Shown: one piece after another, positions 60,661-62,959 of the stretch
How the letters are laid out: the number at the start of each line of letters is the position of its first letter
Position numbering within the stretch: position 1 is the first letter of the stretch
From: Pseudomonas sp. GM78
Lineage (GTDB): Bacteria > Pseudomonadota > Gammaproteobacteria > Pseudomonadales > Pseudomonadaceae
Length of the DNA stretch: 64,000 nt
Assembly (NCBI RefSeq): GCF_000282475.1
Contig: NZ_AKJF01000074.1
Location: forward strand, 57,045 to 121,044
Direction: 5' to 3'
Position numbers and translations under genes: made by a program
The notes under the pieces: model-generated
Seen by the model: only the letters and a program-made list of their open reading frames with translations
Databases searched by the model: none
Told to the model about the DNA's origin: nothing

Positions 60661-62067
60661 ATGGCCAAAGGACATTTCATTTGCCTGGGTGACGAGACCA
60701 CTTGCGGCGGCAAGGTTTTGGAAGCCGACACGCGCGTCATGATGTTTGGTATCGCCCATGCTCGAGAAGGCGACCGCGTTTCCTGCGGAAAAAACGACGA
60801 AACGTACAAGATCGTGGGAGGCGTCTCCTACATCAACAGTCATGGCAGGATCGTGGCGGGCTCGCTAGACAGCTACAGCACCTGTCCGTGCAGAGCCAGG
60901 TTGATTCCGTCGGTTTTCAACGCCACTTATGAATCGAACCACAGTGCTGCGCCCAATACCACAAGGGCCGCGTCCCAGCCCACCACACCTCTCGCCAGCA
61001 ATCCGGCACCACGATCAGCCGGTTTCACGTCTGCGTCGAGCACTCCCAAACCAGTGCCCCTGGGCACAGCATCCCCGGAACCAGGCTTCTACATCGTGCC
61101 CAAGAGCACCACCCGCGAACAGCTCGAAGCCTCCTTGTTCACCCTGCGTGACCCGGCGGTGATGGGCAAATTCAAGTTGCTCAATCCCAATCTACGCGAC
61201 GTCAAAGCCGGCTCGATGATCGTACTGAGCGATCCGAGCAACTACCAGTGCACCCGTGAAGAAGCCCTGCTCATGGACGTGGCGGCCAGGACCAACCAAG
61301 TGCTTGAAACGCTCAGCCCGGAAGAAGCGGATTTCATGGTGCAGCACCGTGATGCCATCCAGACTTTCTTGGGCCATGGCTCGACCGCAATCGGCGTCGG
61401 CGCGAGCATTCTCAAAAACAATCTGGATAACGTCAGTAAAACTCTGAGTGACATCGAAGCGCTTCATCAGCGTTCATTTTTACGAGATGGACATCTGAAT
61501 TCACCGATTTTTTTTGCGGAGCGCCAACAGCTGTTCGCAAAACTCGATACTCATATGACAAGCCTGACACGAAAAGGTATTGGATTCCCTGATCATCCAA
61601 ACTTAAAGCGTGCGCTAGGTATCTCAACTCGTAGCTTGGTTCACCGTTGGACCGAGGCCGGCAGCGCACAGCATATTCCGGGATACTCGACTCATCTTGA
61701 GGGCGCCGCCAGGGCTTCCAAATACCTCAAATATGGTGGTTGGCTAGGCACAGCTATTGGCGGAGGGGCGTCGGTTATGAAGGTGCAGGATGTGTGTTCG
61801 GCGGGAAATACCGAAGCTTGTGAGCGAATCAGGTTCACGGAAACGGGAAATTTTGTTGGGGGGATCGCAGGTGGTGCCATGGCGGGTGCAATATTAACTA
61901 CTTCTGTAGTTGGTGGGCTTTGTATCGGACTGGGTGTGGCGACAGCAGGTGTCGGTCTGCTGGCGTGCAGTGTCATCGCGGTTGGCGTTGGTACTTATGC
62001 AGGCGGCACGCTAGGTGAGATGGGTGGCGAAATAATTGGCGAAATTGTCTATGAAAATTTGAAATGA
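60661..62067 (+). CDS. Orphan PAAR-domain protein, predicted type VI secretion effector with membrane C-terminus
   Basis: It has 468 residues. A PAAR domain (1-85; FICLGDETTCGGKVL, EGDRVSCG, STCPC) should cap the VgrG spike. A Pro/Ser/Ala linker (about 92-138) leads to a LysM-like segment (141-190; GFYIVPKSTTREQLE, LLNPNLRDVKAGSMIVL). A helical middle part follows (195-350). The C-terminus (354-450) is hydrophobic and very glycine-rich, with GxxxG-type spacing (GGIAGGAMAGA, GLGVATAGVG), suggesting a membrane-inserting or pore-forming toxin. Two paralogous membrane proteins follow, the first overlapping by 4 bases. No VgrG, Hcp or other T6SS gene is in the window. The toxin activity is inference. 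Confidence 0.75.
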   Translation: MAKGHFICLGDETTCGGKVLEADTRVMMFGIAHAREGDRVSCGKNDETYKIVGGVSYINSHGRIVAGSLDSYSTCPCRARLIPSVFNATYESNHSAAPNTTRAASQPTTPLASNPAPRSAGFTSASSTPKPVPLGTASPEPGFYIVPKSTTREQLEASLFTLRDPAVMGKFKLLNPNLRDVKAGSMIVLSDPSNYQCTREEALLMDVAARTNQVLETLSPEEADFMVQHRDAIQTFLGHGSTAIGVGASILKNNLDNVSKTLSDIEALHQRSFLRDGHLNSPIFFAERQQLFAKLDTHMTSLTRKGIGFPDHPNLKRALGISTRSLVHRWTEAGSAQHIPGYSTHLEGAARASKYLKYGGWLGTAIGGGASVMKVQDVCSAGNTEACERIRFTETGNFVGGIAGGAMAGAILTTSVVGGLCIGLGVATAGVGLLACSVIAVGVGTYAGGTLGEMGGEIIGEIVYENLK

Positions 62068-62447
62068 CTACTGCGGAACTGGTTGTTGGCAGTTTATGTG
62101 GAATAGTACTCGTTAGCATGTTTGTCTGGCTCGCGGTGGCGTTATACCTTGGCTACACAAAAACTGACGTCCTACTCAATTCCTTCAAGAACAGTTCTTC
62201 AGTCATAACCATTTCTATGCGCATACACAAGGGGCCTTGGGGAAAGCTGCAACTGGTGGGTTCAGTATGCAGCGTCGTTACATTTCCCCGCTTTTTTGTA
62301 AAACACGGTATCGCCGGTGCTGGAGATATAGAAAATTTCCCCCTTTCACTCAGGCGCAAGTTCATCGTCCTCATGTGGAGCGCTGTAGGACTATTTGCCG
62401 CTTTAGCGTTACTCGTCACGTTGTGGAAATCAGGAGTGCTCAAATAA
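62064..62447 (+). CDS. Small membrane protein, putative immunity protein 1
   Basis: It has 127 residues with helices near 6-32 and 98-122 and a conserved core between them: YLGYTKTDVLLNSFKNSSSV, GPWGKLQLVG, VTFPRFF. The gene overlaps the PAAR gene stop by 4 bases (ATGA). It is clearly homologous to the protein at 62573-62959. A membrane immunity role against the glycine-rich toxin domain is inferred from position and topology. No known domain is recognised. Confidence 0.7.
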   Translation: MTTAELVVGSLCGIVLVSMFVWLAVALYLGYTKTDVLLNSFKNSSSVITISMRIHKGPWGKLQLVGSVCSVVTFPRFFVKHGIAGAGDIENFPLSLRRKFIVLMWSAVGLFAALALLVTLWKSGVLK

Positions 62448-62572
62448 CTGATTCCGACATTTTGAACTGGAGTGACTGGACAATATTGGGCTCGGAGGAG
62501 TTGCGTCGGCCATGACGGTTCAGGATGAAAAGTTGGTGAGGATATCGCTGCAAACGATTATGAGGCAGTGAA

Positions 62573-62959
62573 GTGACTTTGAGTACAGCTGATAAATTAT
62601 TTCTTGTAGTCGGACTGGTTGATTTCGGAGGGCTCATCGCATGCATTGGATTTACACTGTACCTGGCCTATACAAAGATGAATATCTTGCTGGGCTGTTT
62701 TAAAAATAGCCCTGCCGTTATAAGTCTTGCACCTCTAAGCTGCGGTGGGCCTTGGGGGCGATTAATGGTGGTAGGGGGGATTTCCGGGTTTGTGACATTC
62801 CCCGATTTCTACATTGAACGCGGGCGTATCAGTGCCGACGATATAACGAGTCTACCTTCGTCACTTAGATGTAGGCTCATTGTATTGCAGTGGTCTGCGA
62901 TCGTTCTGCTATTGATCATGTTCTGCCTCGCAGCTCTGGTTGAAATGGAGATTTTCTAG
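62573..62959 (+). CDS. Small membrane protein, putative immunity protein 2 (paralog)
   Basis: This 128-residue protein with two membrane helices near 8-33 and 100-123 shares with its neighbour YTKxxxLLxxFKNSxxV, GPWGxL, VTFPxF, DI and SLRxxxIVLxWSA. The start is GTG at 62573 with GAGG 7 bases upstream. The 125 bases before it hold only a 19-codon frame and no toxin remnant that I can recognise. It looks like a tandem duplicate that has diverged, perhaps protecting against a related toxin. Confidence 0.68.
   Translation: MTLSTADKLFLVVGLVDFGGLIACIGFTLYLAYTKMNILLGCFKNSPAVISLAPLSCGGPWGRLMVVGGISGFVTFPDFYIERGRISADDITSLPSSLRCRLIVLQWSAIVLLLIMFCLAALVEMEIF

What the first reader, a model, noticed from the sequence alone, without database searches (positions are those of the whole stretch)
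60661..62959. Orphan PAAR effector with a glycine-zipper membrane C-terminus and two immunity-like genes
The order is PAAR - linker - LysM-like segment - helical part - glycine-rich hydrophobic C-terminus, immediately followed by two small membrane proteins and far from any visible T6SS gene. The C-terminal 100 residues match no toxin family I recognise. Membrane toxins are usually countered by membrane immunity proteins, which is what lies downstream. This is the best candidate for an undescribed toxin-immunity pair in the window.
Basis: partly seen in the sequence, partly recalled or inferred. Interest (0 to 1): 0.75.

Follow-up and report, generated by a model that had tools for sequence, protein, structure and literature searches.

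The report
Pseudomonas T6SS membrane toxin with immunities
This is most likely a weapon that an environmental-type Pseudomonas injects into rival bacteria to make their inner membrane leak, encoded next to two small membrane proteins that protect its owner; the toxin family has no name in the reference libraries searched, but weapons of this general kind are known.

Summary
ORF 60661-62067 is PAAR (residues 9-70), linker, LysM-like unit, helical part and glycine-rich C-terminus; two related small membrane proteins follow, the first overlapping the toxin stop by ATGA. Pfam, NCBIfam and PADLOC name nothing in it beyond PAAR. The conserved unit is residues ~132-468, not only the last 100. Elsewhere it sits behind PAAR or VgrG trunks, in a gene directly after Hcp, or nearly alone. 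In 78 of 82 copies of at least 250 aa an immunity-family ORF starts within 60 nt of the toxin stop (71 with ATGA); 35 of 82 have two or more within 2.5 kb. Immunity divergence tracks the C-terminus beyond the LysM half. The genome also holds a 76% paralog, a truncated C-terminus with immunity relics, and T6SS genes on other contigs, so 'orphan' means a scattered T6SS effector. Best reading: a T6SS effector acting from the periplasm on the inner membrane, probably by ion leakage, with cognate immunity proteins; pore activity is inferred. Closest known in kind is Serratia Ssp4/Sip4; membership is open, because the family's four invariant C-terminal cysteines do not match Ssp4's three. New member of a known kind.

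The parts
60661..62067 (+). toxin gene, 468 aa: PAAR trunk plus toxin module
60685..60870 (+). PAAR domain, residues 9-70
   Evidence: PF05488, 37.3 bits; PAAR-like fold
60871..61074 (+). linker, residues 71-138, mostly without predicted structure
   Evidence: pLDDT under 50 at residues 89-137
61075..61233 (+). LysM-like beta-alpha-alpha-beta unit, about residues 139-191
   Evidence: order of elements in the model, pLDDT 83-90; 0 of 37 members hit Pfam LysM
61255..61614 (+). helical part, residues 199-318
   Evidence: model, mixed confidence; conserved in 37 sequences
61684..62061 (+). glycine-rich C-terminal helices, residues 342-467, proposed membrane-inserting part
   Evidence: low-confidence helices; glycine zippers and hydrophobicity
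61795..61821 (+). invariant cysteine pair C379-x7-C387
   Evidence: 75 of 75 rows each; C-x7-C in 8 of 8 diverse members
61921..61968 (+). invariant cysteine pair C421/C436
   Evidence: 75 of 75 rows each
62064..62067 (+). ATGA overlap of toxin stop and first immunity start
   Evidence: sequence; same overlap in 71 of 82 relatives
62064..62447 (+). first immunity-like membrane protein, 127 aa
   Evidence: model of seven helices, mean pLDDT 72.9
62573..62959 (+). second immunity-like membrane protein, 128 aa, paralog of the first

Best explanation
The gene encodes a specialised T6SS effector. Its PAAR tip would cap a VgrG spike of the T6SS encoded elsewhere in the genome and carry the module behind it into the periplasm of a rival. 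There the LysM-like unit and helical part would load or orient the toxin, the glycine-rich C-terminal hairpins would insert into the inner membrane and make it leak ions, and two cysteine pairs would close into disulfides in the oxidising periplasm. The first small membrane protein, overlapping the toxin gene, would block it in the producer's inner membrane; the second is a related immunity protein, perhaps against a sibling variant. Shown: architecture, family, adjacency, co-divergence, trunk swapping, T6SS genes in the genome. Inferred: delivery, periplasmic site, ion leakage, disulfides, immunity function.
For: PAAR domain. The same module behind VgrG and PAAR and directly after an Hcp gene. 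Immunity-family ORF within 60 nt downstream in 78 of 82 copies, 71 by ATGA. From the immunity side, 26 of 30 loci have the CT in the locus. CT-immunity distance correlation 0.49 after removing the LysM half, 0 of 999 permutations as high. Glycine zippers and hydrophobic C-terminus; hydrophobic immunity proteins. Truncated CT plus immunity relics in the own genome and in a same-species genome. TssC in the genome.
Against: No activity data. The C-terminus is modelled with low confidence (blocks 37-57). CT and LysM halves are equally divergent overall (0.416 and 0.417), so the CT is not simply a hypervariable tip. Orphan immunity genes without the toxin exist. Relatives with short N-termini show no delivery domain. 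In one first-round locus, L089, whose toxin is split over two frames, no immunity hit was found.
Confidence: 0.7

Rival explanations
1. It is a divergent member of the described Ssp4/Sip4 pore-forming family (its Pseudomonas group), so the mechanism is essentially already known.
For: The paper reports a large Pseudomonas group, an Enterobacterales group and a marine group, a small downstream gene, loci often far from T6SS genes and sometimes beside Hcp or VgrG; distribution and context here agree. Ssp4 is 331 aa with 13 helices and one sheet, Sip4 is modelled as seven helices; the module here is 337 aa with 13 helices of four or more residues and one small sheet, and the first immunity protein has seven helices.
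Against: Ssp4 has three cysteines, C47, C123 and C165, all needed; here four other cysteines in the C-terminal third are invariant in 75 of 75 rows, also in Pantoea and marine relatives. Sip4 has at least 145 residues and four predicted membrane helices, the proteins here 127-128 with two clear hydrophobic ends. Helix counts rest on a low-confidence model. The Ssp4 sequence is not held here.
Confidence: 0.4
2. The glycine-rich hairpins only carry another activity across the target membrane, as a glycine zipper does for the DNase Tde1, and the toxic activity lies in the helical part.
For: A glycine-zipper translocation role is reported for Tde1 (PMC10240207, search listing and start of abstract only). 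Residues 199-318 are conserved and partly confident helices.
Against: No enzyme family matches any part. Immunity divergence follows the C-terminus more closely than the other half (partial 0.49 against 0.30). The immunity proteins are membrane proteins.
Confidence: 0.2
3. It is not a toxin but a structural or loading protein of the T6SS tip, and the small proteins are unrelated membrane factors.
For: PAAR is structural and LysM domains can help effectors bind VgrG (PMC10673891, passages).
Against: Pairing with a fast-diverging paralogous family, tandem and orphan immunity genes and truncated C-terminal relics are signs of toxin-immunity turnover.
Confidence: 0.05

Closest known systems
Ssp4/Sip4, pore-forming T6SS effector and immunity of Serratia marcescens (PMC12669606, PMC5792426)
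   Same: About 330-residue T6SS membrane effector, helices plus one small sheet, membrane immunity protein encoded downstream, loci scattered from T6SS clusters, relatives in Pseudomonas, Enterobacterales and marine bacteria
CDI ionophore toxins, CdiA-CT EC93 type (PMC11630599)
   Same: Helical toxin with a glycine zipper and an N-terminal helper part; small, polymorphic, hydrophobic cognate immunity proteins; toxin and immunity co-diverge
   Different: Delivered by CdiA, not by T6SS trunks; five-helix ionophore; immunity of 72-100 residues predicted as two-helix hairpins
Tme/Tmi membrane-disrupting T6SS effectors (PMC7046647)
   Same: C-terminal membrane-acting domain found behind PAAR, VgrG or MIX, with a downstream immunity gene
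   Different: Tme has an almost invariant DxxK before a membrane helix and mainly DUF1240-type immunity; residues 331-468 here hold one Asp (378) and no DxxK

Membership tests
Specialised PAAR effector of T6SS | N-terminal PAAR domain with a C-terminal extension | tested here: met
   PF05488 over cut-off, residues 9-70 of 468; PAAR-like fold
Specialised PAAR effector of T6SS | Genome encodes a T6SS | tested here: met
   TssC family hit of 414.9 bits on C78; TssB, TssK, TssL, ClpV-, VgrG- and TssM-like ORFs recognised by eye only
Specialised PAAR effector of T6SS | Secretion depends on the T6SS | not testable with these tools
   needs an experiment
Polymorphic toxin-immunity system | Toxin module exchanged between delivery trunks | tested here: met
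   PAAR, VgrG and Hcp-adjacent forms
Polymorphic toxin-immunity system | Cognate immunity gene directly downstream | tested here: met
   78 of 82 within 60 nt
Polymorphic toxin-immunity system | Truncated toxin ends and extra immunity genes | tested here: met
   C73 relic, L095 and L100; 35 of 82 with two or more immunity ORFs
Ssp4/Sip4 family | Profile match to Ssp4 (HMMER score above 100 in the paper) | not testable with these tools
   Ssp4 sequence not held; no Enterobacterales genome with it was reached
Ssp4/Sip4 family | Three essential cysteines at 47, 123, 165 of 331 | tested here: not met
   Module cysteines at 66, 248, 256, 290, 305 of 337; Ssp4 positions from PMC5792426
Ssp4/Sip4 family | 13 helices and one sheet | tested here: inconclusive
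   Same count in the module, but the C-terminal helices have pLDDT 37-57
Ssp4/Sip4 family | Integral membrane immunity protein with four predicted membrane helices | tested here: inconclusive
   Two clear hydrophobic ends and a weaker middle segment, 127 aa; seven-helix model
Tme/Tmi family | DxxK motif before a membrane helix | tested here: not met
   Only one Asp in residues 331-468 and no DxxK (sequence; read by eye)
Tme/Tmi family | DUF1240-like immunity | tested here: inconclusive
   Not among hits of the two immunity proteins nor among the 25 of 31 families shown for 96 relatives; the paper needed HHpred for some Tmi
CDI ionophore toxins | CdiA trunk | tested here: not met
   The window protein has a PAAR trunk
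LysM domain | Pfam LysM match | tested here: inconclusive
   0 of 37 members; one distant relative at E=0.21; beta-alpha-alpha-beta order in the model

The most novel reading that the evidence does not exclude
A separate, unnamed superfamily of pore formers carried by contractile injection machines, armed by oxidation in the victim's periplasm through two invariant cysteine pairs that bracket the membrane hairpins. It moves between PAAR, VgrG, Hcp-linked and even phage-tail gene clusters, and its hosts stock immunity paralogs against neighbours' variants.
Probability: 0.3. Interest if true: 0.62.

Novelty: new member of a known kind. Interest (0 to 1): 0.42.

Why it matters
The toxin C-terminus is found in 154 of 298 sampled genomes of this genus, yet no Pfam, NCBIfam or PADLOC model that we matched covers it. 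If confirmed, it adds a common antibacterial weapon of environmental Pseudomonas, explains many small hypothetical membrane proteins as immunity genes, and gives a testable case of toxin activation by disulfides in the victim. Its appearance in a P2-like phage tail cluster would bear on how payloads move between phages and secretion systems.

Tried and rejected
Tried without result: PDB sequence searches of the toxin and of the A1 profile (nothing; 10 matches, best E 0.4); PHROGs (a family of unknown function over residues 5-104 and weak tail families); PADLOC (nothing). The structural second look aligned 635 chains and listed PAAR entries and generic helical bundles; no LysM entry was listed, which excludes nothing. 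The toxin-immunity complex could not be predicted with the tools at hand.

Rejected: Tme membership (no DxxK); an enzyme active site (no family match); 'orphan' in the sense of unrelated to T6SS. I first noted Ssp4 as very likely the same family (note) and withdrew this after reading Ssp4's cysteine positions (note). The idea of a hypervariable tip on a constant trunk holds only partly: over 66 pairs CT and LysM halves are equally divergent, the most variable 20-residue bins being 132-151, 232-271 and 412-468. For the 111 comparisons with close LysM halves (distance under 0.2) the CT is at 0.275 and the immunity protein at 0.514.

Limits and dropped rows: A1 used 36 of 38 printed references plus the window (L021 and L030 left out); A2 used 74 of 85 plus the window; A3 used 94 of 98 plus two window rows. 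The 82 copies come from L101-L179 (the best 79 loci of 304 relatives), include paralogs of one genome and contig-cut genes, and leave out L167 (too little downstream sequence). The 16 immunity hits without a listed CT were picked by eye, and 5 of them repeat loci among the 30. The immunity HMM was built partly from the same loci. Match lists were cut by the tool.

Full report

Own genome. The window lies in contig C74 of a 7.29-Mb genome. There are five PAAR matches. C71 holds a 76% identical full-length paralog, C135 and C56 share only residues 1-131, and C73 holds a truncated copy of the C-terminus. C135 carries PF10720 (DUF2515, 207.9 bits) behind the same PAAR trunk. C71 ends and C73 begins inside an immunity gene; the closed same-species genome G264 shows the likely full order: toxin, immunity, truncated C-terminus, immunity, immunity (L095). 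TssC is on C78 (414.9 bits); TssB, TssK, TssL and ClpV-like ORFs beside it, and VgrG, PAAR, TssM- and TssA-like ORFs on C95, were recognised by eye. So this is one of several scattered effectors of a T6SS-bearing genome.

Family. The C-terminus was found in 154 of 298, and the first immunity protein in 106 of 298, sampled genomes of the genus (own genome included). By reading the two lists, 7 of the 106 immunity-positive genomes are not CT-positive. A scan of named genomes gave 304 relatives, of which 79 loci were returned, all from records named Pseudomonas except one Stutzerimonas. Outside the genus it is rare: 4 of 320 other genomes sampled from the class. Two Pantoea plasmids, one Klebsiella record and 51 Vibrio plasmid records match at low identity; one Pantoea copy is annotated as a PAAR protein and another is 332 aa with a 134-aa protein behind it. 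The conserved unit is residues ~132-468 (37 sequences, 42-77% identity to the window).

Trunks. The same module sits behind VgrG (L081 and L082: PF05954, PF04717, PF22178), behind several PAAR types, in a gene directly after Hcp (PF05638 in L085, overlapping in another frame), behind a conserved N-terminus of roughly 110 residues unknown to Pfam (L126, L127, L134, L138, L155), or with only about 44 residues in front (382-aa forms). Of 82 copies, 27 had a BLAST-detected PAAR trunk, 22 the Hcp-linked N-terminus, 2 VgrG and 31 another or none; 9 of the 31 are cut by a contig end, and L118 is PAAR by Pfam.

Immunity. In 78 of 82 copies an immunity-family ORF starts within 60 nt of the toxin stop, 71 by ATGA, and the other 4 have one within 1 kb; 35 of 82 have two or more within 2.5 kb. 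From the immunity side, 26 of the 30 loci returned have the C-terminus within the locus; of the other four, one (G120) is an array behind a toxin (L100). Of 16 immunity hits picked by eye because no C-terminus was listed nearby (5 of them also among the 30), 8 had a C-terminus or remnant and 8 had none in the fetched stretch: orphan immunity genes exist. In the first 20 fetched loci, L089, with a toxin split over two frames, gave no immunity hit. Among 66 toxin-immunity pairs mean distances are 0.417 (LysM half), 0.416 (C-terminus) and 0.638 (immunity). C-terminus and immunity distances correlate at 0.65, and at 0.49 after removing the LysM half, with 0 of 999 permutations as high; LysM half and immunity given the C-terminus correlate at 0.30. 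This fits cognate co-diversification, though permutation does not remove shared ancestry.

Cysteines. Cys 379, 387, 421 and 436 are present in 75 of 75 rows, and Cys 197 in 73 of 75. A C-x7-C plus a second C-terminal pair occur in eight of eight diverse members, Pantoea and marine ones included (spacing 9 in L092). The first pair lies at the turn between the first two modelled C-terminal helices and the second in the next two helices, so oxidation in a target periplasm is plausible. That is inference; dependence on the target's DsbA is shown for Ssp4 (PMC5792426, passages).

Mechanism. Most likely: T6SS delivery to the periplasm, insertion of the glycine-rich hairpins into the inner membrane, ion leakage, and neutralisation by a membrane-embedded immunity protein. 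Precedents read: Ssp4/Sip4 (PMC12669606: abstract and outline, sections 7, 11, 14 and 29, and passages) and CDI ionophores (PMC11630599: abstract and outline, sections 6 and 8). Passages were read of PMC7046647 (Tme), PMC10673891 (LysM in T6SS), PMC11148199 and PMC13340143.

Known or new. No Pfam, NCBIfam or PADLOC model matches the module convincingly. Seven literature searches showed no paper that, from the listings and passages read, names this Pseudomonas family; supplements were not readable and most subscription papers are not held. The Ssp4 paper reports many Pseudomonas homologs; length, helix counts and distribution agree, the cysteine pattern and the immunity size disagree. I hold 'works like Ssp4' as likely and 'belongs to the Ssp4 family' as open (0.4).

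Noticed in passing
L183:3349-6237: In a viral contig a distant relative of the module (330 aa) and a 142-aa membrane protein lie between a P2-like tail gene S (PF05069) and the spike gene V (PF04717, PF18715): a T6SS-type payload inside a phage tail cluster.
   Followed up: partly
L182:3-5381: Viral contig with a PAAR-fused toxin and a 129-aa immunity-like ORF near the contig end, downstream of a large ORF that looks like a tail fibre.
   Followed up: no
L016:5623-6976 and L095:3518-6756: Row of toxin C-terminus relics and immunity genes behind a full-length paralog; one immunity copy in L016 is split over two frames.
   Followed up: partly
L100:1584-4514: Six immunity-family ORFs in a row behind one toxin.
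   Followed up: no
L018:4253-6405 and L019:4424-6534: Two more PAAR effectors of the own genome with the same PAAR trunk; the L018 copy matches DUF2515 (PF10720), and a 204-aa ORF overlaps the 3' end in both.
   Followed up: partly
L126:3605, L127:3659, L134:3611, L138:3614, L155:3689 (N-termini): A conserved N-terminus of roughly 110 residues (MRLIRR...ESPFFA...) without a Pfam match precedes the module and may be a T6SS delivery marker.
   Followed up: no
L085:821-2781: Hcp gene overlapping the module gene in another frame; the module's roughly 150-residue N-terminus recurs in 22 of 82 copies and has no Pfam match.
   Followed up: no
window:58150-60378 and L082:23-6478: A putP-like gene and an ORF with DPPYEKPIPHP flank the PAAR form here and a VgrG form in another genome, suggesting an effector insertion hot spot.
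   Followed up: no
L193:1881-3535 and L196:2-3918: Marine relatives lie close to ORFs that look like the two-partner-secretion (FHA-type) N-terminal domain, recognised by eye.
   Followed up: no
L208:2277-4115: An orphan immunity-family ORF sits between two copies of a small repetitive protein (repeat around RTMNRVAQDGSD).
   Followed up: no
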